Origin: Elusimicrobia bacterium RIFCSPLOWO2_02_FULL_39_32
GTDB lineage: Bacteria > Elusimicrobiota > Elusimicrobia > 2-02-FULL-39-32
DNA: 64,000 bases
Direction: 5' to 3'
NCBI GenBank assembly: GCA_001800135.1
Contig: MGUU01000014.1
Coordinates: 62,001-126,000, forward strand
Notes under the pieces: model-generated
Seen by the model: only the letters and a program-made list of their open reading frames with translations
What the model was told of the DNA's origin: nothing
The model's database searches: none
Made by a program: the position numbers and the translations under genes
Part shown: positions 3,759 through 55,673 of the stretch, in pieces
How the letters are laid out: every line of letters begins with the position of its first letter
Position numbering within the stretch: position 1 is the stretch's first letter

Positions 3759-3825
3759 ATAAAAATCTGTATGACCATTGGCCCACCGTGATTCTATTTC
3801 TTAACCTTACAAAAGAGGTGTGATG

Positions 3826-4820: not shown

Positions 4821-4836
4821 AGTCTGATCGGTCCGT

Positions 4837-4865
4837 TTGACAAAGAACAAAAGTCATGTTATAAT
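4837..4865 (+). promoter_or_regulatory. Consensus sigma70 promoter
   Basis: TTGACA at 4837-4842 and TATAAT at 4860-4865 are separated by exactly 17 nt, a perfect match to the bacterial housekeeping promoter. It lies about 31 nt before the GbsR-like regulator at 4896 and probably drives the genes from the regulator through the flippase and beyond. The predicted leader is about 24 nt and shows no clear Shine-Dalgarno motif. Confidence 0.8.
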
Positions 4866-4895
4866 ACGTTTATAATATTCTAAACATTCAAAATT

Positions 4896-5396: not shown

Positions 5397-5398
5397 AA

Positions 5399-6844: not shown

Positions 6845-8196
6845 AAGTTGTATTGATATTTCCTCCGCTCGTTTTAAAACACCGTTACGCGCATAGTGTT
6901 GGGGATGCGGGTGGAAACCTTCCTCCTTTAGGGCTTCTTTATCTTGCTGCCGTCTTAGAAAAGGCCGGACATGAGGTACATATCATTGATTCTCCTGTAG
7001 AAAACCTTGATTTAGAACAGGTGATTGAACGGATCAATTCGTTGCAGCCGAATTTTATGGGAGTTTCGTCCATTACTTCTCTAGCAGAAAAGACGAAAAG
7101 TCTCTGCCAGGGGGTTCGCAAGCAGTTCCCTAATATCAAAATTTTTGTAGGCGGCCCTCACCCAACGGCTCTTCCGGAGGATGTTTTAAAGGAAACCGGA
7201 GCTGATGTCGTGATTCGGGAAGAGGCAGAGAATGTCATTTTAGATATGATCGAAAATTTTGAAAAGTATGCTCAGCAAAAAATTGTGGATGCGGGCAAAG
7301 TAAAAAATTTAGATGATTTGCCTTTCCCTGCACGACACTTAATTGATTTAAATCGGTATACCGCTTTACCGAACAATTATAAACGAACTCCAAATTCGAT
7401 CCATGTAGTGACGTCGCGCGGGTGCCCTTATCCATGCACTTTTTGTTTTGATGCAAAAAGCGGTTTTCGGCAAAGGAGCATCCCTCATGTGATGGATGAG
7501 CTTCGGCATTTAAAAAAAAAATATGGCGCGGTTGAGATCGCCTTCTGGGATGATACTTTTACAGTGAATCGAAAATGGGTGATAGAATTTTGTGAAACAA
7601 TGATCCGCGAAAAAATGAATATGATCTGGGGCTGCTACTCACGTTTAAACTTAGTTGATGCAGAACTTTTGAGAAAAATGAAAGAAGCGGGGTGTTGGAC
7701 GATGTTTTTTGGGATCGAATCCGGCGACCAAGAATTGTTAGACAACATCAAAAAACTGATGACGGTTAAGCAATTAAAAGAGAAGGTGAGGTTGGTCCAA
7801 TCTTTTGGAATTGAAATTCGTGGTTCCTTTATGGTAGGAATGCCTGGAGAGACTCCCGAGAAAGCGCGTAAAACCATTGATTTTGCAATTGATTTAGACC
7901 CTGACTACGCGCAGTTTTCCATTACGACGCCTTATCCAGGTACAGAACTCTATAAAGAAGTCTCTAAGTGGGGCACTTTAAGCGAAGAATATAGCGAGTT
8001 TCATGGCTGGTCCCCAGTTTTTGTACCGAAAGGATACAAAAGCGCAGAAGAGTTAAAAGCAATCAATCGAGAAGCGTTTGAAAAATTTTATTTTAGGCCA
8101 AAATTTATTTTAAAAAAACTTTTCAAGATTCGATCTTGGACTGATATTCGTCGCTATTGGAAAGGGTTTCGGTTTGTTTTAGGAATGACAAACTAA
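6841..8196 (+). CDS. B12-binding-domain radical SAM enzyme
   Basis: This 451-residue enzyme has an N-terminal cobalamin-binding-type Rossmann domain (to about residue 150, with GGPHPTALPE near 104-113). A radical SAM core follows with the cluster motif at C195, C199 and C202 (CPYPCTFC). Class members include BchE, hopanoid and lipid modifying enzymes and many glycan or natural-product methylases. The classic DxHxxG cobalamin lower-axial motif is not apparent, which is common in this class. It overlaps the flippase by 4 nt and abuts the next gene without any gap. It may modify the lipid or sugar part of the surface glycan; the substrate is unknown. Confidence 0.88.
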   Translation: MKVVLIFPPLVLKHRYAHSVGDAGGNLPPLGLLYLAAVLEKAGHEVHIIDSPVENLDLEQVIERINSLQPNFMGVSSITSLAEKTKSLCQGVRKQFPNIKIFVGGPHPTALPEDVLKETGADVVIREEAENVILDMIENFEKYAQQKIVDAGKVKNLDDLPFPARHLIDLNRYTALPNNYKRTPNSIHVVTSRGCPYPCTFCFDAKSGFRQRSIPHVMDELRHLKKKYGAVEIAFWDDTFTVNRKWVIEFCETMIREKMNMIWGCYSRLNLVDAELLRKMKEAGCWTMFFGIESGDQELLDNIKKLMTVKQLKEKVRLVQSFGIEIRGSFMVGMPGETPEKARKTIDFAIDLDPDYAQFSITTPYPGTELYKEVSKWGTLSEEYSEFHGWSPVFVPKGYKSAEELKAINREAFEKFYFRPKFILKKLFKIRSWTDIRRYWKGFRFVLGMTN

Positions 8197-9798
8197 ATGA
8201 CGATAGAAACTGCAATTTTTTTAACAATTATTCTTGTTTTAGCTTTCTTTTTGCGTTTTTATCATTTAAAAAAAAGAGGTCTTCTTTATTGGGATGACGG
8301 CGTACGCATGCAAGAAGTTCTATTTTTAGAGGAATTGGCTTCATTTCTGAAAAAAAATTTGAATCGAATTTTAGCCCGAGAAATTTCTTTAAAAGAGTCT
8401 GCTCCTCGTTTTCGAGGTCTCTATCATTTTGACAGCAATCCTCTAAACATTTTCTGTTATTGGGTTGTGTCTCTGTTTACAAAGAACATTGAATTTTCTG
8501 GATTAGTTGCAAATGCTGTTTTAGGAGTTCTTTCCGTTTTAGGAACTTTTTTCCTGGCACAACTTGTTTTTGGAACAACGGTAGGTCTTCTTTCTGCGCT
8601 TGTGTTAGCCCTTTCTGCTTATCATCTCAACTATTCGCGATCCATTTATGCAGAAGTCAGTTGCAGCGCTTTTTATGTTTGGGGAACTTATTTTTATTTT
8701 TTAAGTTTTAGAACCAATCATCCTTTATTGATCCTTTTAGCTGGATTTTTCATTGGATGCGCTTTTACCTGTAACTCTCGCCAATTTTATCTTCCTTTTT
8801 TCTTTGTGTTGTACGAACTGACATCGCTATTTTTCCAACCCTTTGACATAATATTTTCTCGACTGATTATGTTAGGGATTTCAATGTTTTTGCCTTTAAT
8901 GCTGATTGAAGAGTTTTTTGTATTTTTGCGCGCGGTTGGGTATCCTTATATGAGTTACTTTATGCAACTTTATGAGAGAACGGGACAAAGGCTAGCAATT
9001 GATTTACGATTTCCTTCCTTTAAAATCTTTTGGAAAACATTTTATTCGTTTGAGGGAATCTTGGCGTTGGGTTTTTTAATCTGGGGCGCCATTCTCAATT
9101 TGAAAAATCCTTCGTCTCCAGCGATTTTGATTTTAGCGCAGTGTTTTTTTCCAATTTTATTTTGGAGCTCTCGCCCAACCAACCTCTTAGAGTGTAGAAA
9201 AGGAAGTATCGGCACTTATCAGATTGCAGTTCCTAGGTTAGCCTCTAGTTGCATACATGGCTTGACGATTGTAGTGGCTGTAGGACTTAGTTCGTTAGGC
9301 AATTTCTTTCCTTATGGACTAGGAATTTTTATTGTTATCGCTCTTTGGAAATGTTGGAAAATAGTTTGCGTGGAATCGGGATACAAAAAAGCGATTGAGT
9401 TCATCCATAGTCAAGGGGATTGGAGTTACATCAGTTTTTGTCATCCTATTTCAGACTATTATGCAAGCCGTGAGAACGAGGTGATCCATTTTGATAAAGT
9501 GAATGCTCCTCTGGAAGAACTTTACAAAAAGAATCAATGTCGTTATTTGCTTTATGTGGATACATTGCACAAAAATAGTTTTCGCTTTTTAAAATTTTCT
9601 TACCTCGAACCAGTTTTATCTTCTTTGAATCCTATTTATTCTGTAGAATTAGGTTACGATCAAATTCTTCCGCTCTATTTTGAGGACAGTTGTCACGACC
9701 CACAGATTTTTAGTCCTTGTTTGATCAAAGTGTATGACCTTGCGCTCCTTTTTAAGCCAATGGCACAAGATTCAATAAAAAAACATGCGACTTTTTAG
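8197..9798 (+). CDS. Polytopic membrane glycosyltransferase, GT39-like
   Basis: This 533-residue integral membrane protein has about ten hydrophobic helices and a soluble C-terminal part. The first external loop carries LLYWDDGVRM, with an Asp pair where GT-C enzymes hold the catalytic acid, and SAYHLNYSRSIYAEV further on matches the GT39/ArnT-like group. Its ATG follows the stop of the radical SAM gene directly. It should use a polyprenyl-phosphate sugar, plausibly one made by the dolichyl-phosphate-sugar-synthase-like GT2 encoded at 10810. It differs in sequence from the other GT-C gene at 2052. Confidence 0.78.
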   Translation: MTIETAIFLTIILVLAFFLRFYHLKKRGLLYWDDGVRMQEVLFLEELASFLKKNLNRILAREISLKESAPRFRGLYHFDSNPLNIFCYWVVSLFTKNIEFSGLVANAVLGVLSVLGTFFLAQLVFGTTVGLLSALVLALSAYHLNYSRSIYAEVSCSAFYVWGTYFYFLSFRTNHPLLILLAGFFIGCAFTCNSRQFYLPFFFVLYELTSLFFQPFDIIFSRLIMLGISMFLPLMLIEEFFVFLRAVGYPYMSYFMQLYERTGQRLAIDLRFPSFKIFWKTFYSFEGILALGFLIWGAILNLKNPSSPAILILAQCFFPILFWSSRPTNLLECRKGSIGTYQIAVPRLASSCIHGLTIVVAVGLSSLGNFFPYGLGIFIVIALWKCWKIVCVESGYKKAIEFIHSQGDWSYISFCHPISDYYASRENEVIHFDKVNAPLEELYKKNQCRYLLYVDTLHKNSFRFLKFSYLEPVLSSLNPIYSVELGYDQILPLYFEDSCHDPQIFSPCLIKVYDLALLFKPMAQDSIKKHATF

Positions 9799-9816
9799 AA
9801 GTCATCGAAAAAAATC

Positions 9817-10797
9817 ATGATTATTGTTCAGACTCCGCTCCGAATCAGTTTTGCCGGGGGCGGAACCGATTTTTCTGAATTTTATAAAAACCATGAAAAA
9901 GGAATGGTGATTAATTCCGCTATTGATAAAAATACTTTTGTGATCGTCAAGGAAAGGTTCGATAAAAAAATTTATCTAAATTGGATGAAAAAAGAAATCG
10001 TGAACTCAGTTCAGGAAATCGAACATGAACTAATTCGAGAGGCGATGAAAAAAACCAAAGTTTCAGAAGGGATTGAAATCACAACTCTTTCTGATGTGCC
10101 TTCTGAAGGATCGGGGTTAGGTTCTTCAAGTAGTCTCACCGTTGGACTTTTGCATGCGCTTTACCTTTATAGCGGCAGAATGGTTGATGCAGAGACACTT
10201 GCACAAGAATCTTGCGAAATCGAAATAGAAATTTTAAAAAAGCCAATTGGAAAACAAGATCAATATATCACAGCTTATGGCGGTTTTAAAAGCTTTGAAT
10301 TTCATTCAAATGGAAAGGTAAAATATACTTCTATACAACTCCAAAATGAAAAATTGCGCAAATTCAATTCGCGTCTTCTTCTATTCTTTACTGGAAAAAC
10401 TAGAAACTCAGCAACAATTCTTTCTAAACAAAAAGAAAATATCAAAAATAAGCAAGAAATCCTTTTACAAATGAGAAGTCAAGTACCAACCATCGAAAAA
10501 TGCCTAAAGAGCAGTCAATTTGATCCTATTGGCTCGATTCTTCATCAAGGTTGGCTCTACAAAAAAGAGCTCGCTTCAAACATTTCTGATCCTATGATAG
10601 ATATTCTTTATGAAAAAGCTTGTAATGCAGGAGCTGTGGGGGGGAAAATTTTGGGCGCTGGGGGGGGAGGATTTTTGCTGCTTTACGTTCAACCGGAAAA
10701 CCAAGATCGCGTACGAGAAGCGCTTGCTGAGCTTAAAGAATTACCATTTAGTTTTCAAAAAGATGGGAGCAAAGCGATCTTTAATGTACGGAATTAA
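9817..10797 (+). CDS. hddA: GHMP sugar kinase, heptose-7-phosphate kinase type
   Basis: This 326-residue GHMP kinase opens with TPLRISFAGGGTDF, the start typical of D-glycero-D-manno-heptose 7-phosphate kinase and related sugar 1-kinases. The ATP-binding motif PSEGSGLGSSS lies at residues 95-105 and the third GHMP motif (GKILGAGGGG) near residue 280. The G-rich third motif is encoded with G7 and G8 runs (10638-10644, 10660-10667). It would make heptose 1,7-bisphosphate or a related sugar 1-phosphate for nucleotide activation. The nearby nucleotidyltransferase and GmhB-like fragment support the heptose reading; a fucokinase-like role is the main alternative. Confidence 0.75.
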   Translation: MIIVQTPLRISFAGGGTDFSEFYKNHEKGMVINSAIDKNTFVIVKERFDKKIYLNWMKKEIVNSVQEIEHELIREAMKKTKVSEGIEITTLSDVPSEGSGLGSSSSLTVGLLHALYLYSGRMVDAETLAQESCEIEIEILKKPIGKQDQYITAYGGFKSFEFHSNGKVKYTSIQLQNEKLRKFNSRLLLFFTGKTRNSATILSKQKENIKNKQEILLQMRSQVPTIEKCLKSSQFDPIGSILHQGWLYKKELASNISDPMIDILYEKACNAGAVGGKILGAGGGGFLLLYVQPENQDRVREALAELKELPFSFQKDGSKAIFNVRN

Positions 10798-10809
10798 TAT
10801 CCTTTTTCA

Positions 10810-11523
10810 ATGGGTCCCTATCTTTCAGTTTTAATTCCAGCTTACAATGAAGAAGATCGGCTTCCTCAAACGCTTCATAAAATTTTTCAGTTCCTTCAAA
10901 AACAGCCTTGGAGTTGGGAAATCATTGCAGTGGATGACGGAAGCAAAGATGGGACAGTCAAAGTAGTTCAAAATTTAGCTAAGCAAATCCCCCTGCGATT
11001 AATCCAACTCCCTCAGAATAAAGGAAAAGGAGCTGCAGTTAGAGAGGGGGTGCTGGCGACAGAAGGGAAATATGTTTTATTTTCTGATGCAGATTTAGCC
11101 ACACCGATAGAAGAGATTTATAAATTGTTGTCTGAAGTCACAGAGGAAAAATATTTAATAGTGATCGGTTCGCGCGCATTACAGAGATCGTTAGTGAGAC
11201 AGAATAATTCGTTTTTACGCGATTTGGCCGGTAAATTTTTTGGGTTATGTGGCCGCTTTTTGTTAGGATTGAACATTCGGGATACTCAATGCGGGTTTAA
11301 GATTTTTGAACGTAATGTTGCTCACTTGCTTTTTTCTAAACAGAAGTTAAACGGAGTCGTTTTTGATATGGAAATTCTTTATTTAGCTAAAAAAGAGGGT
11401 TATAACGTCAAAGAGGTTCCAGTGATTTGGGAACACAATTTTAATACGCGAATCCCCTACAATTTTTCTAAATCAATTGCAGTTTTTTTAGATTTAGTCA
11501 GAATTAAAATTTTTCATGGGTAA
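10810..11523 (+). CDS. GT2 polyprenyl-phosphate sugar synthase-like glycosyltransferase
   Basis: This 237-residue GT-A enzyme belongs to the dolichyl-phosphate glucose/mannose synthase-like branch of GT2. Visible motifs are VLIPAYNEEDRL, VDDGSKDGT (Asp42/Asp43) and the metal-binding SDAD at residues 92-95, then DTQCGFKIF. It would load a sugar from a nucleotide donor onto a polyprenyl phosphate, which GT-C enzymes then use outside the membrane. It has no C-terminal membrane anchor. The gene overlaps the downstream epimerase by 8 nt. Confidence 0.85.
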   Translation: MGPYLSVLIPAYNEEDRLPQTLHKIFQFLQKQPWSWEIIAVDDGSKDGTVKVVQNLAKQIPLRLIQLPQNKGKGAAVREGVLATEGKYVLFSDADLATPIEEIYKLLSEVTEEKYLIVIGSRALQRSLVRQNNSFLRDLAGKFFGLCGRFLLGLNIRDTQCGFKIFERNVAHLLFSKQKLNGVVFDMEILYLAKKEGYNVKEVPVIWEHNFNTRIPYNFSKSIAVFLDLVRIKIFHG

Positions 11524-44275: not shown

Positions 44276-45136
44276 ATGACGCTTTGGAACAATGATACCG
44301 ATATACAATTTTTTACGGAAGCATTAAAAAATTTTGCTTCACCTGAACAGCTTTTCTACAACCTTCAAGGAGGTTATTACGCGTATATACCTAAAGGTTC
44401 AGATGCCGAAGGACAAACACTACAAAGCCGCAACTCACTCATAGGACAGTTCACGGAAAAGTGGAGCAAAACACTTTTCGAACCAATCGCCAAAGAATTA
44501 GGACTTTTTGCAGTGAATGGCGTTGTATGTGAAGATCTCGGATTAACAAAACAATCAAGCGCTGATCTTGCTTTATGCACAACAAATAATATTACTCAAC
44601 AACCAGAAAACATCAAACTTCTTTTTGAAATTAAAATGAGTGTTATCTCAAACTACAAATTTACTCAACCTAATAAAGTAGATTTTGTTGGTGATTATAA
44701 ACAACACAGGGGTAATCCTTCTTTACTTCGTTCCGACTCAATGCTAAAAGCAATCGGCAAGTCAATCAATATAAGGGTTTCAGGGCTTTTATCAACAAAA
44801 ATTCCAATCATCATTTTAGGCAATAGCCCAATACAAGAGAGTTATCAAAAAAAAGTTGACTTCTTAAAAACTTCTGGAATTATTCAAGGTTTCTGGTCGC
44901 TAAATCCACAACCAACAAACAGCCAGTACATAAAAGAAACCGCCAAGAAAGGATTTCAGACAATCACAAAAGTTGAAACAATCTTGGAACTCTCAAAAGA
45001 ATTAATTGTAAGCGATATGAATTATTTTTCATCCATGATAGCAAAAACTGATTTAGGAAAAATTATTTCAGATGCAAATAAAGAAAGTTCGGATATTGCA
45101 AAAGCAGAAAAATTCTTGTCATTAATCCGAGGCTAA
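44276..45136 (+). CDS. Type II restriction endonuclease-like protein (PD-ExK)
   Basis: This 286-residue protein shows a PD-(D/E)xK nuclease core: Asp97 in SADLAL, then Glu118-Ile-Lys120 in LFEIKMS. It is encoded 1 nt before a DNA methyltransferase on the same strand, the arrangement of a type II restriction-modification pair. The recognition site is unknown. Its codons and spacing differ little from neighbours, but the surroundings look like an island. Confidence is high for nuclease fold, moderate for restriction function. Confidence 0.75.
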   Translation: MTLWNNDTDIQFFTEALKNFASPEQLFYNLQGGYYAYIPKGSDAEGQTLQSRNSLIGQFTEKWSKTLFEPIAKELGLFAVNGVVCEDLGLTKQSSADLALCTTNNITQQPENIKLLFEIKMSVISNYKFTQPNKVDFVGDYKQHRGNPSLLRSDSMLKAIGKSINIRVSGLLSTKIPIIILGNSPIQESYQKKVDFLKTSGIIQGFWSLNPQPTNSQYIKETAKKGFQTITKVETILELSKELIVSDMNYFSSMIAKTDLGKIISDANKESSDIAKAEKFLSLIRG

Positions 45137-45137
45137 A

Positions 45138-46049
45138 ATGAAACGACTAAAAGGAACAGAAACGAGTGTTTTTGGAACAAACGGAAGAATCAATCATGAC
45201 AGTTCAAAATTTTACAATTCAAAAATGTATTCTACGCTTGAAGAAAAAAAGGTCATTGACAAAACTGAAAATAAACTACCCGATGAATTTATGAATAAAT
45301 TTATTCTTGGCTCTGCTGAGAATATGAAAGAGCTGCCAAAGAACTCTATTCATTTAATGATTACTTCCCCTCCTTATAATGTTTCAAAAGAGTATGATAA
45401 TGACCTCTCGCTAAAAGAGTATCTACAATTGCTTAAAAATTCTTTTAAAGAAACTTATAGGGTACTGATTAATGGCGGACGCGCTTGTATTAATGTAGCT
45501 AATCTTGGCCGGAAACCATACATACCTCTTTCCGACTATATTTCAAAAATGATGATGGATATTGGCTTTAATATGCGTGGAGAAATTATTTGGAACAAAG
45601 CAGCAAGCGCAAGCCCATCTACCGCATGGGGAAGTTGGTTAAGCGCTGCTAATCCAATTCTACGCGACATTCATGAATACATTTTAATTTTTTCTAAAGG
45701 TGACTACAACAGAATTGGAAAAGACAAGCAGAGTTCGATTACAAAAGAACAGTTTATGGAGTGGACAAAGTCCATTTGGACGATGAACGCTGAAAGCGCA
45801 AGACGAATTGGACATCCTGCGCCATTTCCAGAACAATTGCCATATCGTTTAATCCAACTCTATTCATTCAAAGATGATATTATCCTTGATCCGTTTATGG
45901 GCAGCGGGACTACAGCGGTTTCAGCAATTAAATCTGAAAGAAAATTTGTAGGATATGAAATTAATAATGAATACATCACACTTGCAAAAAATAGATTGAA
46001 CCCATACTTGATGCAAACGAAAATGACCTTTGTATCAGATGCAGTTTAG
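45138..46049 (+). CDS. Beta-class DNA methyltransferase, probably N4-cytosine
   Basis: This 303-residue methyltransferase has TSPPY at 76-80 as motif IV before DPFMGSGTT as motif I (about 253-261), the beta-class order. The SPPY form is common in N4-cytosine methyltransferases, though N6-adenine cannot be excluded. GIRVNG-like target regions lie between. It protects the host against the endonuclease encoded 1 nt upstream. Confidence 0.9.
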   Translation: MKRLKGTETSVFGTNGRINHDSSKFYNSKMYSTLEEKKVIDKTENKLPDEFMNKFILGSAENMKELPKNSIHLMITSPPYNVSKEYDNDLSLKEYLQLLKNSFKETYRVLINGGRACINVANLGRKPYIPLSDYISKMMMDIGFNMRGEIIWNKAASASPSTAWGSWLSAANPILRDIHEYILIFSKGDYNRIGKDKQSSITKEQFMEWTKSIWTMNAESARRIGHPAPFPEQLPYRLIQLYSFKDDIILDPFMGSGTTAVSAIKSERKFVGYEINNEYITLAKNRLNPYLMQTKMTFVSDAV

Positions 46050-46114
46050 AGTAGGCAAGGATTAATGACTTTTTGACTTATTGGAATTTATAACTTCGTC
46101 CGATTGTACCTTAA

Positions 46115-46139
46115 AAATCAATATCATTGATATGGATTT
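46115..46139. promoter_or_regulatory. 25-bp palindromic operator-like sequence
   Basis: AAATCAATATCA and TGATATGGATTT are inverted copies, with one mismatch, around a central T. The site lies in the 158-nt gap between the first methyltransferase and the DUF5677-like gene. There is no T-tract, so a protein-binding dyad (operator or recombination site) is more likely than a terminator. Confidence 0.5.
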
Positions 46140-46207
46140 GTTTGAAAATAACCAAATTCCCATGATAATAACATCCTCTCTAAAAACTGATCGCGATAAA
46201 TGGATAA

Positions 46208-47074
46208 ATGATAATGAATGATGATGTCTATGATGCAATTGAACCTTTGAATGACTCTACTATTAAAGCTATATACCAAACTAACAAAAAACTATTTGAT
46301 CTTGCTATGAAACTATCGAAATTGGCTCATTCAGTTATTCCAATTGGATTTAAGCTAGAGGAAAACACCTTAAATCCAACAGTAGAGAAAACTTTGGTCG
46401 CATTATACACTCAATCATATAGGCTCTACCGCTCAATAATAATACTTTGTAAGTCTGGTCTTGGTATAGAATCTTTAATAATGTTGAGATCCCTTCAAGA
46501 GACGGGGACATACTTGCTCTATATAGCAGAAAAAGATCATGATGTACGTTTGGAACATTATTGGTATTCAACAATACTATCTCAGCATGGCCGAGCTAAA
46601 GAGTATCTTGAATATTTTCCAGATGATAAGGTTAAGATAAATTTTGCTCTCTTTGAAAAAGAGAAAGAAGAGGCGTTGCAATATTTTAGAAAAAAACATG
46701 GCAAAAACGTCTCTGAGTCAGATATTAAAAAAAAATATACATTAAAAACAGTGAATATTGTGCAAGATCTGTATGAGCCAAAAATGGTAAAAAATTATAA
46801 AATAATCTTCCGTGATGCGTCATCAGTAGCTCATGGAGAAAATATTAGGAAATATATTAAACCTAATAACACTAATCTTAATACTTTTTATCTAACTGTT
46901 AGCCCTACAGACAATTATGTAATTCTCTCAATAACGCATTCGATGATGTATATTTTTCACGAAATGAAAAGAATAAATGAGCTACTCAAGATCATTGACT
47001 CAAAATTAATCAATGATCTTGAAGCAGAAATATTAGAATTGCTAAAAAAACTTGGGCGCGATGTTCCTTTATAA
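46208..47074 (+). CDS. DUF5677-like helical protein
   Basis: This 288-residue, mostly helical protein has SYRLYRSIIILCKSGLGIESLIMLRSLQETGTYLLYI in its first half, similar to the RSLFE-type helix of DUF5677 proteins, which are often found in islands and near defence genes. The function of the family is not known. It lies between the two restriction-modification pairs. The ATG at 46208 or 46214 could be the start. Confidence 0.6.
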   Translation: MIMNDDVYDAIEPLNDSTIKAIYQTNKKLFDLAMKLSKLAHSVIPIGFKLEENTLNPTVEKTLVALYTQSYRLYRSIIILCKSGLGIESLIMLRSLQETGTYLLYIAEKDHDVRLEHYWYSTILSQHGRAKEYLEYFPDDKVKINFALFEKEKEEALQYFRKKHGKNVSESDIKKKYTLKTVNIVQDLYEPKMVKNYKIIFRDASSVAHGENIRKYIKPNNTNLNTFYLTVSPTDNYVILSITHSMMYIFHEMKRINELLKIIDSKLINDLEAEILELLKKLGRDVPL

Positions 47075-47115
47075 ATATTTGTAGCCGGGAATGGTGCAGA
47101 AGTTTGCATAGAAGC

Positions 47116-47151
47116 AAGAAATTCCCAAATCCTCATGTGAGGAAATTTCTT
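47116..47151 (+). other. Hairpin, possibly an IS200/IS605-type element end
   Basis: AAGAAATT (47116-47123) pairs with AATTTCTT (47144-47151), and inside it TCCTCA pairs with TGAGGA around two bases. The preceding sequence (AGAAGCAAGAAATTCCC) reminds me of the structured right ends of IS200/IS605-family elements. No transposase or TnpB gene is present. Without a search this is only a resemblance. Confidence 0.4.
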
Positions 47152-47165
47152 CGTCTTTAGACCAC

Positions 47166-47181
47166 TTCACCACTTGGTGAA
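47166..47181 (+). other. Small perfect hairpin TTCACC/GGTGAA
   Basis: A 6-bp perfect stem with loop ACTT lies 14 nt after the larger hairpin, and TCTCGAGA, an 8-bp palindrome, follows shortly. Together they make the 47075-47297 gap unusually rich in symmetry. Confidence 0.55.
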
Positions 47182-47222
47182 AAATGCTCTCTCGAGACAT
47201 GGGCGTTACATGATCTTTTGGG

Positions 47223-47238
47223 CTCCTATACTGTTATT
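47223..47238 (+). repeat. 16-bp direct repeat, right copy
   Basis: This is an exact second copy of the 16-bp sequence at 44205-44220, on the same strand and about 3.0 kb away. The copy continues into a TTGACA (47237-47242) that, with TAGAGT 17 nt on (47260-47265), could be a promoter for the second methyltransferase. Confidence 0.8.
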
Positions 47239-47297
47239 GACATATGCTGATTGAAATTTTAGAGTGGAAGTGATAATATTTTTTTGAGGTGGACTCC

Positions 47298-48284
47298 ATG
47301 AAAAGTAAACTATCTTCATACAAAATAAATTTAAAAACAGACAGTGTAATCAGAGACTTATCAAATGCCTTGGGGTCAGAAGAATTAAAGACTGGAAAAT
47401 TCCACAAGGTTATTAATGGGAATTGTGAACAAATTTTAGAGGAAAATAATTTCAAAAAAGAGACTGGGCTTTATCATGCTATTGACTTAACCTTTCTCGA
47501 CCCGCCCTTTAATCAGGATAAAGAGTACGCTGAATATGACGATAATTTACCGACAGAAAAATACTGGGGATGGATGGGACAAATTACAAAACAAATTTAT
47601 GATTTGACAACTGCTGGTGGCGCAATTTATTTTATGCAAAGAGAAAAGAATGCCGAACTTGTCCTTAAATGTTTACGAAAATCGGGTTGGTGTTTTCAAA
47701 ATCTCATTGTTTGGAAGAAAAAAACTTCAGCAGTTCCCGGAGCCATCCGTTTTGGAAAGCACTACCAAATTATCGTATTTGCAACTAAAGGTCATCGCCC
47801 AAGGGTATTTAATCGGCTGCGCATTGACCCACCACTTCCACCTCAATATAAGCACGAACGTGAAAATGGAATGTTTGTTACAGATGTATGGGACGATATA
47901 CGAGAACTAACTTCTGGGTATTTTGCTGGGGATGAAGCGATTCGTGACAGCTCAGGAATAAGATTACACAAACAGCAATCTCCTATTTCTTTGCTCTTAA
48001 GAATTATCTTGTCTTCATCAATGCCAGGAGATCTAGTTCTAGATCCTTTTGCTGGGACCGGAACCACTTCGGTTGCATCCTCACAATTACAAAGGAATTC
48101 AATTGCTATCGAGTTAGACCCAATCAATGTGAGAGCTATTCAGGATCGTCTTACTTCATTGAGGGTAAGCGATCGTATTCAAAGATTTATCAATGATTAC
48201 AGATATACACCAGATTTCCAAAAAATTTATCCGAATTCATCTGAAATAAGAGTAGTGAAAAACAAGCAGTTGGAGTTTGCTTAA
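47298..48284 (+). CDS. Beta-class DNA methyltransferase, probably N6-adenine
   Basis: This 328-residue enzyme has DPPF at 68-71 as motif IV and DPFAGTGTTSVASS as motif I near residue 250, so it is beta class; the DPPF form suggests N6-adenine. It is followed 6 nt later by a nuclease-like gene and forms a second restriction-modification pair. A GTG at 47289 is in frame, but AGGTGG fits the ATG at 47298 better. Its target site is unknown. Confidence 0.9.
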   Translation: MKSKLSSYKINLKTDSVIRDLSNALGSEELKTGKFHKVINGNCEQILEENNFKKETGLYHAIDLTFLDPPFNQDKEYAEYDDNLPTEKYWGWMGQITKQIYDLTTAGGAIYFMQREKNAELVLKCLRKSGWCFQNLIVWKKKTSAVPGAIRFGKHYQIIVFATKGHRPRVFNRLRIDPPLPPQYKHERENGMFVTDVWDDIRELTSGYFAGDEAIRDSSGIRLHKQQSPISLLLRIILSSSMPGDLVLDPFAGTGTTSVASSQLQRNSIAIELDPINVRAIQDRLTSLRVSDRIQRFINDYRYTPDFQKIYPNSSEIRVVKNKQLEFA

Positions 48285-48290
48285 TTTTTC

Positions 48291-49124
48291 GTGTACTCAA
48301 TTTACCACTTTTTTAAAAATCTTGCTGCTAGCAAAAAATATTTCCTAAAGACAAAAGACCTCCAAGAATTCCCATACGATCTTTCATTACTCTCATGCAG
48401 AAATAAAGGGACATTCCCTGATATGGCAATCAGAATAAATTCAAATAAATCCACTTTTACGGGTGGTGAATTAATAGAATTGAAGGACAGTAATAGTTAT
48501 ATAGTATCCTCATTTAATTCAACCATCCCTACTGGAAGGAAGGATGTTGATAAGATCATAACTGGGCAGAATAGCAGAATAAAACAGCAAATGATAGAAG
48601 CTGGTAATGATATTTATTCGTTACCAACGAGGGAAGTATTTTATTTGGTAAGAGGGAAAAAACACACTATTACAAAAGTTTGTCTGGTTCATGGTAGTTT
48701 TTTTGAAACTATCGGCGTTGACAAGTTAATTAACCAGGCTTTTTCCCAAGTTTTAGAAGAAAGGTTGAAAGAAACCGGCGAACATATTTCTGATGAGCTT
48801 AAAGCGCAGCTCTTAGATATTTTTTCTAAACAAGACAATTTTAGCAAAGTTAGGGACGTAGAAAGGGCATCTGTTAAGATTCGCTTTCGAATAATGACTG
48901 AGGTAAAAGCAGAAGGCAATATATTAAACTCAAAAAAATACCCTGAAATTAAGGATAACACCCTAAATTTTATCCTGCCTTTTCATAACCAGGACGAGGA
49001 AAAAGAACATTTAGAAAAAATGAAAATAGTTTTTGGAGAGAAAAATTTTAACTCTTTCGATTCATTCAAAATAAAACATCATTTTAATGGATATTTCCTT
49101 GCCTTTCAAATATTGCTTCGGTAG
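48291..49124 (+). CDS. Type II restriction endonuclease-like protein (PD-ExK)
   Basis: This 277-residue protein has Pro43-Asp44 (FPDMAI), then Glu63-Leu-Lys65 in GELIELKDS, a PD-(D/E)xK site. It lies 6 nt after an N6-adenine-type methyltransferase and is probably its partner endonuclease. The start is GTG at 48291. It shares no clear similarity with the nuclease at 44276, so the two pairs are different systems rather than a duplication. Confidence 0.72.
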   Translation: MYSIYHFFKNLAASKKYFLKTKDLQEFPYDLSLLSCRNKGTFPDMAIRINSNKSTFTGGELIELKDSNSYIVSSFNSTIPTGRKDVDKIITGQNSRIKQQMIEAGNDIYSLPTREVFYLVRGKKHTITKVCLVHGSFFETIGVDKLINQAFSQVLEERLKETGEHISDELKAQLLDIFSKQDNFSKVRDVERASVKIRFRIMTEVKAEGNILNSKKYPEIKDNTLNFILPFHNQDEEKEHLEKMKIVFGEKNFNSFDSFKIKHHFNGYFLAFQILLR

Positions 49125-49510
49125 CAGTGCTAATAATGCGCCTATCTGACTTTATGAAAGACTTTACATAAACTTTATGTACAATATTTACTCTCAAATT
49201 TCTAGTCTCTCCTCGCGACTATAAGCTTCTAGAGGATATTTCCTGCATTCGTGAGCAACTCCGCATGTCGTTAGTGAAAGTCCCTTGGGTTCCTTCCCTA
49301 CCTAGTACGAGCTGCCATGCCTGTGCCGCATAGGGGTCAACCGCTATTGAAGGATGCACCCTCTCTGTAGAAAGCTGTTCATTGGCTCATGGAAGGCAAG
49401 GCAGCAGTAGGACTATGTCTCAAGAAATCTACAACTTTGAGAAGTATTTGGTAGCAGATACTAGAAATAATCAAAAATGGACGTAAACCTTAGATTTAAG
49501 TAAAAGGAAT
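49125..49510 (+). other. 386-nt noncoding stretch, possibly a degraded group II intron or other structured RNA
   Basis: There is no credible gene. The middle part is more GC-rich than the flanking island genes and contains GTTAGTGAAAGTCCC, CTACCTAGTACGAGC and CATAGGGGTCAACCGC, which remind me of the conserved domain I region of group II introns. No reverse transcriptase and no convincing domain V is seen. It may instead be a promoter region for the protease gene with unrelated remnants. Confidence 0.3.
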
Positions 49511-50383
49511 ATGAAAAAAATAAAATGCATATTATCTATTTTTATTATTTTCGGACTGATATTTTTTATAAGCGGCTTTGAAGTAATGGCGAAAGGACAA
49601 GACCATTTAGGCACAGAAATTATGGAACATACTTATTTAGTTATAGATTCTACTAATAATAAAAATGGTGATTTTAACTTTGGGACATGTTTTCTAATAG
49701 CAGCTCCTCTGGGTGACAGATACGTTCAAGTTCTTGTTACTGCAAATCATGTCTTGAAAGATATGTTAGGGAATGATGTCATAGTTAAATTAAGGACCCG
49801 AGGTGATAACAAAAAACTGACCCCATTCGATTACAAACTTCCTATAAGGAGTGGCGGTAAAGAGCTATGGGTAAAACACAAAAATGCGGATGTTGCAGTA
49901 ATACATTCGGCAATGCCGGATGAATACCTTGATATTGATAAGAGTTTAATTCCTACTATTGATATTCTTGCAGATGATGACCACTGGAAAAATTTTCATT
50001 TAAAAGTTGGGGCACACATTACCTGCGTTGGTTACCCGGGAGCGTTTAGTTCACAAGGCTCTTATACTCTACATGGTTATCCCGTTTTAAGAACAGGAGC
50101 AATTGCATCTTATCCTCCTAATGACCCCGAAAATTCTTTTTTTATGCTAGATAGAGACATATTGGGAGGCAATAGCGGCGGTCCTTGTTTTTATAATGGA
50201 ATTATTGATACTTACAAAGGTGATTTTAGCTCATACGAAGTCAGATCCATTCTTGGATTAGTTACGCATCGGTATGGTAATGTCAAAAATGGAAATATTG
50301 AACAACCATTTGACTACACAGGAGTTGTTCATGCAAAATATATTAAAGAAACTATACATGAACTTCTAACTAATAAAAAATAA
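49511..50383 (+). CDS. Exported trypsin-like serine protease
   Basis: This 290-residue protein has an N-terminal signal sequence (about 25 residues, MKKIKCILSIFIIFGLIFFISG). The chymotrypsin-fold catalytic triad is His80 in TANHVL, Asp127 in NADVAV and Ser222 in GGNSGGP. No PDZ domain follows, unlike DegP/HtrA. It probably acts in the periplasm. Its stop is 1 nt before the PIN-like gene. Confidence 0.88.
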   Translation: MKKIKCILSIFIIFGLIFFISGFEVMAKGQDHLGTEIMEHTYLVIDSTNNKNGDFNFGTCFLIAAPLGDRYVQVLVTANHVLKDMLGNDVIVKLRTRGDNKKLTPFDYKLPIRSGGKELWVKHKNADVAVIHSAMPDEYLDIDKSLIPTIDILADDDHWKNFHLKVGAHITCVGYPGAFSSQGSYTLHGYPVLRTGAIASYPPNDPENSFFMLDRDILGGNSGGPCFYNGIIDTYKGDFSSYEVRSILGLVTHRYGNVKNGNIEQPFDYTGVVHAKYIKETIHELLTNKK

Positions 50384-50384
50384 A

Positions 50385-51203
50385 TTGAAAATATATCTCG
50401 ATCAAAATATCTGGGAATATGTGATTCAAGAATTCACTGTTAGTTCTTTCCTGGAAAGAATAAAAAGGAAACAATTTGAACTCTGTTTAGGACTTCATAA
50501 CATTTATGAATTTGGACGGTGTTTTTTAGAAAATGACATGACTAAGATTGAGAAAGGTAAAATTATATTCAAATATTTACATGATCTTAAAATAGAGTTT
50601 TTTGCGAATACTGAAAAGTGTCTGATAGAATCTGACATAACATATGCAAAATATGGGGGTAGGACTATACCATTCCCATGGCTGGATTCCTTAAATATAG
50701 TTGCAACAAAACAGGAAATTTATCACCTATCAATTGGTAATTTCAGCAAAGCTAAACAGTTTATTAAAAATCGAGAAGACGGCTTAACAAAGAATACGCC
50801 TGTGTTTAGGCAAGCGGTCATTAGTAATAACTCTGAACAAGATAAACCATTGAATGTACAGATTTTAATGAATGATTGGGGATGTAGAAGGGATATTATC
50901 AATCAGACAAAATACGCTACAATGGCAAAAAATATCTCAGATTCAGTACTTTTTTCTGAGCCAACGAAGTATCCATTTTTAAATACTTTCATAAATGTAA
51001 ATATACACTTAAACTTCATAGCGCTGGCAAAGCCACAGGGGCCAAGCAAAAAACGCACGAGTGATTATCGTCACCTAATTATCTCGAATGCTGCAGATAT
51101 TTTTGTGACAAATGATATGAATTTAAAAAAAAATTCCTTAACATTATGTCCCCATCATAAGGTTCTAGATACAACCGAATTTAAAGAGATGCTTACTAAA
51201 TAA
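50385..51203 (+). CDS. PIN-like domain protein, predicted ribonuclease
   Basis: This 272-residue protein has the PIN acidic set at Asp6 (IYLDQN), Glu42 (NIYEFGR), Asp227 (DYRHL) and Asp244 (VTNDMN). These four residues, in the usual order and near the usual sequence signs, point to a metal-dependent RNase. It is longer than most VapC toxins, with an insert between Glu42 and Asp227. TTG at 50385 is the start codon. It is coupled to the protease gene; no antitoxin gene was found. Confidence 0.7.
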   Translation: MKIYLDQNIWEYVIQEFTVSSFLERIKRKQFELCLGLHNIYEFGRCFLENDMTKIEKGKIIFKYLHDLKIEFFANTEKCLIESDITYAKYGGRTIPFPWLDSLNIVATKQEIYHLSIGNFSKAKQFIKNREDGLTKNTPVFRQAVISNNSEQDKPLNVQILMNDWGCRRDIINQTKYATMAKNISDSVLFSEPTKYPFLNTFINVNIHLNFIALAKPQGPSKKRTSDYRHLIISNAADIFVTNDMNLKKNSLTLCPHHKVLDTTEFKEMLTK

Positions 51204-51371
51204 ACTTATCGAACAAAGTAAATGACACTTTACAGATCAAAACAAAATTTTTGGATAATTTATAGGAAAGAATTATGCCATTGCTGACGGTTGCAGAGGT
51301 ATGACGAAGCAAAAAATCCAGGTTCATTGACCAGCCGACGACCGATTTAGTACCATAAATCTTGAAGTCTT

Positions 51372-52511
51372 ATGAAATTTTTTGTGGAAACTTTTGGTTG
51401 TCAAATGAATGCTGCGGACTCAAATGAAATGAGTCTTGAGCTTACTAAAAAAGGATGGACGCCTACCGAAAATAAAGAAGAAGCAGACCTGCTTCTTTTA
51501 AATACCTGCACTGTAAGGCAGCATGCTGAAGATAAAGCTCTTTCCTTTATTGGCCGTTTAAAACCCTGGAAAAAGAAAAAACTGGATAGAAAAATTATTG
51601 TCACAGGCTGCGCCGCTGAACGCATTAAAAAAACCTTGCAAAAACGCTTTCCCCATGTTGACTTAGTGATTGGGGCTAAAAGCATTGAACAGTTTCCAAA
51701 GATCCTTAATTCTTTCATAAAAGATGCAGAAAAAAATTCAAAGGATTTCAATTGGTTTGAAGAAAGTAAAACCTTTTTTGGAAAAGGGGATTTGCGTTCT
51801 GGGGGCAAGCCGCTTGTGTTAGGGCAAGAAGGAGATTGCGCTTTTGTCACTATCATGCGCGGATGTAATTATTCTTGTTCCTACTGCATTGTGCCTATGG
51901 TAAGAGGAAGAGAAATCTATTTGCCTAAAGAAAAAATTTTAAATGAGGTTGAGGATAAGGTGAATGAAGGAGCTAAAGAGGTCATGCTCCTTGGCCAAAC
52001 TGTAAACTCTTATTGGCAAAAAAGTGAGGAAGGAAAAATTTATGATTTCGGAGATTTGCTGCTGGAAGTAGAAAAAATCAAAGGTTTGGAAACCATAAAA
52101 TTTATGAGCCCTCACCCTCATTATATGAGCGATAAACTTATCCAAACTTTAGGAAAATCTGAAAAATTTTCTAGCCAAATCCATTTGCCGGTTCAATCCG
52201 GCTCCAACAAAATTTTAAAAAAAATGAAAAGAAACTATACCAGGGAAGACTATCTCGCCATGGCTAAAAAACTAAAAAAAGAGATGCCTCATCTGCAACT
52301 TTCCACGGATTTTATTGTAGGTTTCCCAGGGGAAACAGATCTGGATTTTAAAGAGACTATTTCCTTGGCAAAAGAAATAAACTTTTCTCTTGCTTATTGT
52401 TTTAAATATTCCCCAAGAGCAGGCACTGAATCTTTTCAAATGGAAGATGATGTTTCTCAAACCATAAAGGAAGATCGGCTCTCGACAATTCTAGCATGCT
52501 GCGCCGTTTAA
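51372..52511 (+). CDS. miaB: tRNA 2-methylthio-N6-isopentenyladenosine synthase MiaB, lacking TRAM domain
   Basis: This 379-residue methylthiotransferase binds two iron-sulfur clusters: C10, C46 and C80 in the UPF0004 domain and C165, C169, C172 in the radical SAM core (CNYSCSYC). MiaB adds the 2-methylthio group to i6A37 of tRNAs. The protein ends right after EDRLSTILA, where the family normally continues into a TRAM domain of about 60 residues, so it is C-terminally short. The next gene starts inside its end (52496). The related miaA is downstream. Confidence 0.85.
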   Translation: MKFFVETFGCQMNAADSNEMSLELTKKGWTPTENKEEADLLLLNTCTVRQHAEDKALSFIGRLKPWKKKKLDRKIIVTGCAAERIKKTLQKRFPHVDLVIGAKSIEQFPKILNSFIKDAEKNSKDFNWFEESKTFFGKGDLRSGGKPLVLGQEGDCAFVTIMRGCNYSCSYCIVPMVRGREIYLPKEKILNEVEDKVNEGAKEVMLLGQTVNSYWQKSEEGKIYDFGDLLLEVEKIKGLETIKFMSPHPHYMSDKLIQTLGKSEKFSSQIHLPVQSGSNKILKKMKRNYTREDYLAMAKKLKKEMPHLQLSTDFIVGFPGETDLDFKETISLAKEINFSLAYCFKYSPRAGTESFQMEDDVSQTIKEDRLSTILACCAV

Positions 52512-53104: not shown

Positions 53105-55673
53105 CCAAACCCTAGCCTCCTCCCTAAAAGAAAATAATAAAGAAAATCCTACTCCTTTGATGGCTCAATATGAAAAAATTAAAAATAGCCATCCTGAGGA
53201 GATCGTTCTTTTCCGTTTAGGCGACTTCTATGAAATGTTTGGGGAGGACGCAAAAAAAGCAGCTCCCATCCTAGAAGTTGTTTTAACCCAACGCCAAGGC
53301 AACCCCATGTGTGGCATCCCCTACCATGCTCTAAATCGTTATCTTTCTAAACTCCTTAAATCCGGCTTAAGGGTTGCGATTGCGGAACAACTAGAAGATC
53401 CCTCTCAAGTAAAAGGCATTGTAAAAAGAGATATTGTGCGGGTTATTTCCAGCGGCACCATCATTGAAGAAAATCTTCTGGAAGAAAAAACAAATAATTT
53501 TCTTCTAGCTCTCTCTTTAGGATCTAAAACTTCTAAAGTTGGCCTGGCTGGTTTAGATATTTCTACAGGAGAGTGGACCATAAAAGAGATTGAAACTGAT
53601 GAGGATGATGCTAAAATTTTAAATGAAATCAGCTTGATAAACCCAGCTGAAATCTTAATCCATGCGGAAACCAAAGATCGTTTTCCAAATATAGAAAGAA
53701 TTCCTATTCAATTTTTTGATCCTCAAGAATTAAATTTAAATGAGCTAGATTTAGATCTTAAGAAAAAATTAGAAACCTTGAAAATTTTCCCAGAAGTTTT
53801 TTGCGCGGTTCAAATGGCGATCGGCTATACACAAAAAATGAACCCAGCTTTTTTAAAAAATCTGCAAACGCCTGCTTTAAGCCCAAACCAAGAGAACATG
53901 ACTCTGGATAAAGAAACCATTGAAAATCTTGAAATCTTAAAAAATCGAGATGACGGCACAAGCAAAAAAACTCTTTTAGAATTTCTGGATCAGACTTTAA
54001 CAGCCATGGGCGGGCGTCTCCTTAAAAACTGGCTTCTTGCCCCATTAATAAAATTAGAAAAAATCCAGTCTAGGATAGAAGTTGTGGATTTTTTTAAACA
54101 AGAACTTAATTTAAGAAAAAAGGCAAGAGAAACTCTTAAAGGATGCTCTGACCTTGAAAGGTTAATGGTAAGAGTCAGCTCTAAATCTGTGGGTCCCAGA
54201 GATCTTTTGGGCTTAAAATTTTCTCTTCTAAAAATAGAGAAACTAAAAAAATTAGCGCTATACCATTCATCTGCAAATGAAGAAAAGATTTGGCTGCAAA
54301 ATTTAGAAAATAAAGAAAAAGAAGAGCCTCATATTTCCTCCTTTAAAAACGAGAACTCTTCCCTTAAACTACCAAAAGAGATTGAAACCATCCTGAATGA
54401 AATGGAAGATGAATCTGATCTTATCTCTTTGCTGCAAAATGCTTTAGAGGACGATCCTCCTATCCAGTTAGAGCAAGGGGGAGCGATCCGCAATGGTTAC
54501 AATTCCCATTTGGATGAAAAACGAGCTGCTGCAAATGAAGGAAAGATTTGGCTGCAAAATTTAGAAAGTAAAGAAAAAGAAGCTACTCATATTTCCACAT
54601 TAAAGGTAGGCTATACCTCAATCTTTGGATATTATCTGGAGGTGACTAAATCTCATCTTAGCAAAGTGCCCCAACACTGGCACAGGAAACAGACTTTAAT
54701 TAATACAGAAAGATTTATAAATGAGGAGTTAAAAAGTTTAGAAGAAAAAATTTTAGGCGCTGAAGAACAGGCTTTCAGAATTGAAAAAAAACTTTTTCAA
54801 GAACTGATCCTGGCTGTAGAAGTTCGCTATCGTCAAATTCAAAAAAGCGCTAAAAGCATTGCAAAACTGGACTGCTTTCTTTCCTTAGCTGAGGTCGCTG
54901 ATCTCAAAGCTCTTGCTAAACCCCAAGTGGAAGAATCTGACGAACTTCTCATTAAAGATGGCTGGCATCCAATTGTAAAAGAATCTCTTGCTGCAGGCGC
55001 TTTTGTTCCAAACGATACTTTTTTAAACTCTAAAGAGCATCAAATCATTATTCTAACCGGGCCAAACATGGCTGGAAAATCCACTTATCTTCGACAAAAT
55101 GCGCTCATTGCCTTAATGGCTCAAATCGGCTCTTTTGTGCCTGCAAAAGAGCTAAAACTTGGGGTGGTGGATCGTATCTTCACCCGCATTGGTTCTGGAG
55201 ACAAGCTGGCTCAGGGGGAATCTACCTTTATGGTTGAAATGAGAGAGACCTCAAAAATTTTAAAAGAGTCTTCAGAAAAAAGTTTAATTATCTTAGATGA
55301 GGTGGGCAGAGGCACCTCTACCTATGACGGCATCTCTATTGCCTGGGCAACCATAGAATATTTAAGTCAAAAAAAAGCTAAAGTCTTATTTGCAACTCAC
55401 TACTTTGAATTAACTAAACTTGCGTCTGAAATGGATCAAGTCAAAAACTACAATGTAGAAGCTAAAGAGTGGAAGGATACAGTTCTATTTTTACATAAAA
55501 TTGTGCCTGGACCGGCAGACCGATCTTACGGCATTCATGTAGCCCAGCTTGCGGGTCTGCCCAATGAAATAATCTTAAGGGCAAAAAAAATCTTAAATAA
55601 ATTGGAACAAGAGCGCATTTCTGTGTTATACTCTAACCAGAAGGAGTTAAACCAACCAGAGCTTTTCAAATGA
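53094..55673 (+). CDS. mutS: DNA mismatch repair ATPase MutS with internal duplication
   Basis: This 859-residue protein has the mismatch-binding domain with FYEMF (Phe wedge and Glu) in LGDFYEMFGEDA, the ATPase Walker A GPNMAGKST, and Walker B ILDEVGRGTST. It finds mismatches and recruits MutL. A stretch of 72 nt at 54271-54342 is about 90% identical to 54529-54600; the second copy is at the usual place before KVGYTSIFGYY, so the first is an extra insert in the lever region. Start ATG at 53094 overlaps the transglycosylase gene. Confidence 0.97.
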   Translation: MSLNQTLASSLKENNKENPTPLMAQYEKIKNSHPEEIVLFRLGDFYEMFGEDAKKAAPILEVVLTQRQGNPMCGIPYHALNRYLSKLLKSGLRVAIAEQLEDPSQVKGIVKRDIVRVISSGTIIEENLLEEKTNNFLLALSLGSKTSKVGLAGLDISTGEWTIKEIETDEDDAKILNEISLINPAEILIHAETKDRFPNIERIPIQFFDPQELNLNELDLDLKKKLETLKIFPEVFCAVQMAIGYTQKMNPAFLKNLQTPALSPNQENMTLDKETIENLEILKNRDDGTSKKTLLEFLDQTLTAMGGRLLKNWLLAPLIKLEKIQSRIEVVDFFKQELNLRKKARETLKGCSDLERLMVRVSSKSVGPRDLLGLKFSLLKIEKLKKLALYHSSANEEKIWLQNLENKEKEEPHISSFKNENSSLKLPKEIETILNEMEDESDLISLLQNALEDDPPIQLEQGGAIRNGYNSHLDEKRAAANEGKIWLQNLESKEKEATHISTLKVGYTSIFGYYLEVTKSHLSKVPQHWHRKQTLINTERFINEELKSLEEKILGAEEQAFRIEKKLFQELILAVEVRYRQIQKSAKSIAKLDCFLSLAEVADLKALAKPQVEESDELLIKDGWHPIVKESLAAGAFVPNDTFLNSKEHQIIILTGPNMAGKSTYLRQNALIALMAQIGSFVPAKELKLGVVDRIFTRIGSGDKLAQGESTFMVEMRETSKILKESSEKSLIILDEVGRGTSTYDGISIAWATIEYLSQKKAKVLFATHYFELTKLASEMDQVKNYNVEAKEWKDTVLFLHKIVPGPADRSYGIHVAQLAGLPNEIILRAKKILNKLEQERISVLYSNQKELNQPELFK
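54271..54342 (+). repeat. Extra copy of a 72-bp segment of mutS
   Basis: This segment encodes ANEEKIWLQNLENKEKE and matches 54529-54600 (ANEGKIWLQNLESKEKE) at about 65 of 72 bases, 258 nt (86 codons) apart and in frame. High DNA identity means the duplication is recent. Confidence 0.85.
54529..54600 (+). repeat. Original copy of the duplicated mutS segment
   Basis: This copy lies just ahead of LKVGYTSIFGYYLEV, the position at which canonical MutS has a similar acidic/basic helix (LEARERE-type). It is therefore probably the ancestral copy, with 54271-54342 as the added one. Confidence 0.85.

What the first reader, a model, noticed from the sequence alone, without database searches (positions are those of the whole stretch)
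49511..51203. Exported trypsin-like protease coupled to a PIN-like RNase
The two genes are 1 nt apart, both look catalytically complete, and they sit in an accessory island beside two restriction-modification pairs. A protease and a nuclease in one unit is common in defence and toxin systems, but here the protease has a signal peptide, so the two partners would be in different compartments. I do not recognise a named system.
Basis: partly seen in the sequence, partly recalled or inferred. Interest (0 to 1): 0.62.

Follow-up and report, generated by a model that had tools for sequence, protein, structure and literature searches.

The report
Exported protease paired with PIN nuclease
A bacterium carries, in a stretch of DNA its nearest relative lacks, a two-gene unit for a protein-cutting enzyme sent out of the cytoplasm and a probable RNA-cutting enzyme kept inside it; both resemble known or suspected anti-virus genes, but nobody has tested this pair.

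Summary
Window 49511-50383 encodes a 290-aa exported trypsin-like serine protease (His80/Asp127/Ser222). One nucleotide later, 50385-51203 (TTG start) encodes a 272-aa PIN-like protein. Both lie in about 5.25 kb that the sister genome (94% DNA identity) lacks. The protease is sound: Trypsin_2, PADLOC candidate PDC-S45 (E 1.2e-15), triad invariant in 28 of 28 aligned sequences. The PIN assignment is probable: no Pfam family, split acidic motifs, one full-length homologue, and a weak model whose nearest folds are VapC/PIN domains.

This exact pair was not found elsewhere: 0 of 80 best protease loci carry this PIN, and the one PIN homologue has no protease upstream. But another genome of the same class encodes XRE-ImmA, a PDC-S70-type PIN and an exported PDC-S45-like protease, the last two overlapping as ATGA, beside a type I R-M system. 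Exported relatives also occur in integron arrays (two loci) and 24 nt behind a defence-type helicase-methylase operon.

Best reading: a mobile accessory bicistron of two defence-type enzymes in different compartments, probably independent layers, resembling a secreted anti-phage Salinispora protease and the split-PIN defence protein DS-3. A single obligate two-component system is possible but unproven.

The parts
49511..50383 (+). Exported trypsin-like (S1, Trypsin_2) serine protease, 290 aa, PADLOC PDC-S45-like; triad His80, Asp127, Ser222
49511..49594 (+). Signal-peptide-like N-terminus (about residues 1-28, ...VMA-KG); could also be an uncleaved anchor
   Evidence: hydropathy; aligned N-termini; no signal-peptide predictor was available
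50385..51203 (+). PIN-like protein, 272 aa, TTG start one base after the protease stop; PIN motifs split between N-terminus (Asp6, Glu42) and C-terminus (Asp227, Asp244)
46056..51310 (.). Accessory segment absent from sister genome G053 (118 unrelated bases there)
   Evidence: blastn; junction sequences
46208..47074 (+). DUF5677 protein, first gene of the accessory segment
   Evidence: E 7.2e-15
47289..48284 (+). N6/N4 DNA methyltransferase of the second R-M pair
48291..49124 (+). Putative restriction endonuclease partner (PD...ELK-like stretch by eye; no profile match)
49125..49510 (.). 386-base spacer between the R-M pair and the protease: no ORF of 80 aa or more, no Rfam family, no attC-like site
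44276..46049 (+). First R-M-like pair (ORF without profile match plus type II methyltransferase), shared with the sister genome

Best explanation
The unit is a horizontally moving bicistron of two defence-type enzymes acting in different compartments. The first gene makes a serine protease exported by a Sec-type signal; the second, translated after re-initiation at a TTG one base behind the stop, makes a cytoplasmic PIN-type RNase whose fold is split by a helical insert and which has no antitoxin next to it. Most likely they are parallel layers that share a promoter and a mobile history: the protease works at or outside the envelope on incoming phage or foreign proteins, and the PIN RNase, held inactive by itself, cuts tRNA or other RNA once infection is sensed inside. 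Shown: ORFs, one-base gap, protease family and triad, accessory location, defence- or mobile-element contexts of relatives. Inferred: export, co-transcription, PIN catalysis, substrates, the anti-phage role, and independence of the two parts.
For: Protease: Trypsin_2 and PDC-S45 profiles, triad invariant in 28 of 28, signal-like N-terminus shared with relatives. PIN: C-terminal match to the PIN part of PDC-M11A (E 0.0011); full-length homologue L161 with D6/D227/D244 conserved; first Foldseek hits to a 2-sequence model are VapC chains (E 0.34-0.52, not significant); VIA second look topped by PIN domain 1o4w (Z 5.8, 72 residues, 2.5 A) and VapCs. Accessory: absent from the sister genome. Contexts of exported relatives: PDC-S70 PIN + protease with ATGA overlap beside type I R-M; 24 nt behind a DrmMI-like methylase and DpdE/DrmD-like helicase in L042; integron arrays with integron integrases L166 and L035, attC-like repeats bracketing the L166 protease. 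Precedents: a secreted S1 protease, sometimes beside defence systems, that lowers phage titre (PMC13175485; abstract, Discussion, passages); one-protein split-PIN defence DS-3 without antitoxin (PMC13092281; passages).
Against: No experiment. Most relatives kept by the scan are Caulobacterales or other alphaproteobacterial proteins that look cytoplasmic and showed no defence context in the few neighbours read, so the family is not defence-specific. The contexts of exported relatives were tallied by eye without a control set. The authors of the Salinispora paper say homologues of their protease are not enriched near defence systems, and its kinship to this one was not tested. The PIN model is poor (mean pLDDT 44.7) and Glu42 is not conserved.
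Confidence: 0.45

Rival explanations
1. One obligate two-component system: the exported protease is part of the trigger or control of the PIN RNase (for example it cuts an envelope protein whose fragment or signal releases the RNase), so neither works alone.
For: One-base gap here and ATGA overlap in the second genome, both beside R-M; arrival at the same kind of pair with a different PIN family and swapped order suggests selection for the combination.
Against: Different PIN families and swapped order argue against a fixed interaction; 0 of 80 protease loci have this PIN nearby; the PIN homologue L161 has no protease upstream; no known path from a periplasmic protease to a cytoplasmic RNase. 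The background rate of PIN adjacency was not measured.
Confidence: 0.2
2. Chance neighbours: two unrelated cargo genes in an accessory island, with no shared function; the protease does a general envelope or nutritional job.
For: Pair of these families not found elsewhere; exported relatives in Desulfuromonadales (L041) and Verrucomicrobia (L067) have ordinary or no recognisable neighbours; many relatives look cytoplasmic.
Against: One-base spacing on the same strand with no room for a promoter; a second PIN plus exported protease unit in the same class; integron and defence-operon contexts of other exported relatives.
Confidence: 0.3
3. A toxin-antitoxin-like unit with PIN as VapC-type toxin and the first gene as its partner.
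For: PIN fold similarity to VapC; adjacency.
Against: The partner is an exported serine protease, not a small DNA-binding antitoxin; no antitoxin-like ORF between or after the genes.
Confidence: 0.05

Closest known systems
PDC-S45 (PADLOC phage-defence candidate, trypsin-like protease)
   Same: Same profile over residues 25-264 (E 1.2e-15); single-gene candidate family; five exported relatives score E 2e-22 to 1e-24
   Different: Here in a bicistron with a PIN gene; no PDC-S45 member is known to me to be tested against phage (recall; the only held paper naming it, PMC12429752, lists it as a candidate)
Secreted Salinispora anti-phage protease (PMC13175485)
   Same: Exported S1-type serine protease (GDSGGP there, GNSGGP here) seen beside defence systems
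   Different: Tat signal, actinobacterial host, no PIN partner reported in the passages read; sequence kinship not tested
DS-3 split-PIN defence protein (DefensePredictor, PMC13092281)
   Same: PIN halves at the N- and C-terminus of one protein; no cognate antitoxin
   Different: One-gene system; sequence not held, so homology untested; no protease
XRE-ImmA / PDC-S70 PIN / exported protease operon in G173 (L165)
   Same: PIN and exported PDC-S45-like protease overlapping in one operon beside R-M
   Different: Order swapped, unrelated short PIN (152 aa), dedicated XRE-ImmA gene upstream; proteases about 19-23% identical
HtrA/DegP-type periplasmic proteases
   Same: Exported chymotrypsin-fold protease; best PDB sequence matches of profile A4
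   Different: No PDZ domain matched; 290 aa in all

Membership tests
Trypsin-like S1 peptidases (Trypsin_2, PF13365) | Profile above gathering score and His/Asp/Ser triad | tested here: met
   36.2 bits against 27.6; H80, D127, S222 invariant in 28 of 28 rows
PADLOC PDC-S45 | Match to profile PDLC05022 over most of its length | tested here: met
   E 1.2e-15, residues 25-264 against 10-247 of 293; the tool gives no PADLOC cut-off
PADLOC PDC-S45 | Anti-phage activity | not testable with these tools
   needs phage challenge
PIN-domain superfamily | PIN fold | tested here: inconclusive
   low-confidence model (pLDDT 44.7); VapC/PIN chains are first in Foldseek but E >= 0.34, VIA Z 5.8 at most
PIN-domain superfamily | Recognised PIN family profile | tested here: inconclusive
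   no Pfam, NCBIfam or PHROG PIN family; PDC-M11A PIN part E 0.0011 on residues 205-271
PIN-domain superfamily | Three to four conserved acidic residues | tested here: met
   D6, D227, D244 kept in the only homologue; fourth (E42) is Val there
VapBC toxin-antitoxin | Small antitoxin gene next to the PIN toxin | tested here: not met
   neighbours are the exported protease and, after 168 bases, miaB-like 51372-52511
DS-3 split-PIN defence protein | PIN halves at both ends, single protein, no antitoxin | tested here: met
   architecture only: motifs at 6-42 and 227-244 of 272; paper passages
DS-3 split-PIN defence protein | Sequence homology to DS-3 | not tested
   DS-3 sequence not held here
HtrA/DegP | C-terminal PDZ domain | tested here: not met
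   no PDZ match; 68 residues follow Ser222

The most novel reading that the evidence does not exclude
A two-compartment immune unit: an exported serine protease attacks phage tail or ejection proteins at the envelope while its operon partner, a self-inhibited split-PIN RNase, stops translation if DNA still gets in; the combination has been assembled more than once from different PIN families in this bacterial class.
Probability: 0.2. Interest if true: 0.8.

Novelty: new variant of a known kind. Interest (0 to 1): 0.5.

Why it matters
Nearly all characterised anti-phage systems act inside the cell (stated in the abstract of PMC13175485). An exported protease that travels with defence genes, integron cassettes and PIN nucleases would be a route to envelope-level immunity, and the pair makes that testable with two point mutants. 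The integron and defence-operon contexts also give PDC-S45, so far only a computed candidate, a more specific sub-group to test: the exported one.

Tried and rejected
PIN homologues: single-sequence scans of genome contigs and viral contigs found none; tblastn in plasmids and phages up to E 10 gave nothing credible; 294 genomes of the phylum gave only the window itself at E <= 0.001, and weak hits at E <= 10, of which the one inspected, L025, runs antisense through a membrane-protein-like gene; 178 genomes of another phylum gave 1; 174 of a third gave one partial match with an internal stop, not accepted; the order of the positive genome holds 3 genomes, only itself positive. L161 as query found nothing in plasmids or phages, nor did a two-row profile in viral contigs or the PDB.

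Structure: single-sequence model useless (pLDDT 30.7). NADPH_Ox and AH_C Pfam hits are sub-threshold noise. An Rfam snoRNA hit at 46155-46251 is half its gathering score and overlaps a coding region. Promoter and terminator scans do not exceed shuffles, so they say nothing about co-transcription. The window is not an integron by attC search. A regular-expression search for other PINs near proteases found 0, but it also missed the real PIN of L006, so it is not used as evidence of absence. Literature: no held paper has 'trypsin-like', 'PIN domain', 'anti-phage defense' and 'operon' together or the five envelope-protease terms together; these searches do not cover preprints or most subscription papers.

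Counts to read with care: (PDC-S45 profile in 294 genomes) did not report the window's own protease although hmmscan does, so it under-counts. In one search, 12 of 80 proteins pass the hydropathy threshold; I set six aside by eye (L045, L083, L087, L091, L098, L111) because most of those stretches lie at the start of the protease domain, and L083 is ambiguous. Searches covered 34 hand-chosen neighbour ORFs of protease loci (plus the window PIN), not all of them.

Full report
Observation. The two ORFs exist as described: 49511-50383 (290 aa, ATG) and 50385-51203 (272 aa, TTG), same strand, one base apart. The TTG start is supported by the protein itself, because the first PIN-type strand (KIYLD) begins at residue 2 (inference).

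Protease. It matches Trypsin_2 above its gathering score, PADLOC's candidate PDC-S45 (E 1.2e-15) and PHROG 7688 of unknown function (E 3e-16). His80, Asp127 and Ser222 are invariant in a 28-row alignment. A profile of it finds HtrA-type proteases in the PDB, but no PDZ domain was matched. The six closest relatives outside the Caulobacterales and other alphaproteobacteria (Scalindua, two Verrucomicrobia, a Desulfuromonadales MAG, a Riflebacteria MAG and a MAG labelled Cyanobacteria) have a signal-like N-terminus 60-72 residues before the catalytic His. The alphaproteobacterial ones mostly start close to the protease domain and look cytoplasmic. Export is therefore a feature of the window's branch, not of the whole family. 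No signal-peptide predictor was available, and an uncleaved anchor is not excluded.

PIN-like protein. No Pfam, NCBIfam or PHROG family matches. PADLOC's PDC-M11A, whose members begin with a PIN-like domain followed by what looks like an acetyltransferase (by eye), matches residues 205-271 at E 0.0011. A small PIN profile built from M11A members and two other PINs aligns its C-terminal motif to the same place and, weakly, its N-terminal motif to residues 4-14. One full-length homologue was found, in 1 of 178 genomes of another phylum (L161): 22-27% identity over the whole length, Asp6, Asp227, His230, Asp238, Thr242 and Asp244 conserved, Glu42 replaced by Val. A model from these two sequences is poor (mean pLDDT 44.7; residues 4-73 mostly 50-66). 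Yet the first three Foldseek matches are VapC chains (E 0.34-0.52) and the VIA list is led by PIN domain 1o4w (Z 5.8, 72 aligned, 2.5 A) and VapCs. By the tool's own note such Z values can be non-specific. I read it as a PIN fold split by a long helical insert, probability about 0.85.

Locus. The nearest genome held (G053, same genus) is 93-94% identical on both sides. It has the first R-M pair directly followed, after 118 other bases, by miaB. The window instead has 46056-51310: a DUF5677 gene, a methyltransferase with a probable endonuclease partner, a 386-base spacer, and the protease-PIN unit. Two other genomes of the family lack both R-M pairs here, by eye (L132, L133). Gain in the window's lineage is the simpler reading; loss in G053 is not excluded.

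Is the pair conserved? Not as such. None of the 80 best protease loci has a relative of this PIN in the flanks held, up to 8 kb each side, and a search of 27 of those 80 whole genomes gave nothing credible. L161 has no protease upstream on its 3.2-kb contig; the nearest upstream gene runs the other way.

A second, analogous pair. In G173, of the same class, an XRE-ImmA regulator (Peptidase_M78 plus HTH) is followed by a 152-aa PIN (PADLOC PDC-S70, E 1.8e-10; PDC-S70 is called a PIN nuclease in PMC12988326, passages read). Then comes an exported PDC-S45-like protease whose ATG overlaps the PIN stop as ATGA. The unit lies convergent to an HsdR-type gene (E 1.9e-163) with M- and S-like ORFs (by eye) and an Abi_C protein. 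The PIN is of another family and the order is swapped, so this is recurrence of a combination, not orthology. One case besides the index case, without a measured background, is suggestive only.

Other contexts of exported relatives, read by eye without controls. In L042 (Riflebacteria) the protease starts 24 nt after a DrmMI-like methylase, itself behind a helicase whose best match is DpdE (E 2.3e-250; DrmD 1.9e-83) and an MZB-domain protein: a defence-type operon. In L166 (same family as the window) and L035 (Scalindua) the protease lies in integron arrays with TIGR02249 integron integrases above cut-off. In L166 attC-like repeats at about 5157-5267 and 6155-6266 bracket exactly the protease ORF 5291-6151. 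In L035 attC-like starts at about 7302 and 8823 bracket a 177-aa membrane-protein-like gene plus the protease. In L157 (viral contig) an exported relative follows phage structural-type genes. L036 has a convergent PIN-like DUF5615 gene just downstream. L040, L041, L067 and L168 show nothing of the kind.

Literature. PADLOC's PDC genes come from guilt-by-embedding and are mostly unvalidated (PMC12988326, passages). A secreted GDSGGP protease from Salinispora, sometimes next to defence systems, reduces phage titre outside the cell; escape maps to a tail protein, and the S219A mutant is inactive. Its authors warn that homologues are not enriched near defence systems (PMC13175485; abstract, Discussion and passages). 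DS-3 is a one-protein defence system with a PIN domain split between both ends and no antitoxin; catalytic mutants lose defence (PMC13092281; passages). SNIPE shows that defence can act at the membrane during injection (PMC13190303; abstract). The window pair looks like one gene of each of the first two kinds placed in one operon; homology to either was not tested.

Mechanism and verdict. I favour two defence-type enzymes sharing an operon and a mobile history but working as separate layers (0.45), over chance neighbours (0.3) and an obligate two-component system (0.2). The step from adjacency to joint function is unproven.

Noticed in passing
L166 (G238) 1435-11060: Integron array: IntI-type integrase, repeated attC-like sites, BrnT and DUF4160 (DhiT-like) toxin-type genes, and the exported PDC-S45-like protease as a one-gene cassette.
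   Followed up: partly
L042 3-8819: MZB-domain protein, DpdE/DrmD-like helicase, DrmMI-like methylase, then an exported PDC-S45-like protease 24 nt downstream; followed by an unknown 441-aa gene.
   Followed up: partly
L165 1798-2919: An Abi_C protein lies between type I R-M-like genes (S-like before, R after) in the locus of the second protease-PIN pair.
   Followed up: no
window 54271-54346 and 54531-54595: MutS holds an extra near-copy of a segment of about 22 residues (ANE.KIWLQNLE.KEKE.HIS); the sister genome's mutS matches across the two copies too.
   Followed up: no
L131 6110-6970 (sister genome): The counterpart of window ORF 44276-45136 (putative endonuclease of R-M pair 1) is interrupted by an in-frame stop in the sister genome, while its methyltransferase is intact.
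   Followed up: no
window 49125-49510: 386-base spacer before the protease, slightly higher in G+C than the genes around it, with no ORF of 80 aa or more and no Rfam match; possibly a relic of another element.
   Followed up: partly
L159 6425-8074: RT-protease fusion (PADLOC RT-Protease_XI, E 3.4e-193) next to what look like P2-type prophage genes.
   Followed up: no
L035 4031-13191: Scalindua integron array carrying HAD-, kinase- and phosphatase-like genes, a gene with a TIR-like or deoxyribosyltransferase-like N-terminus (by eye), ankyrin-like and DUF4160 genes beside the exported protease.
   Followed up: no
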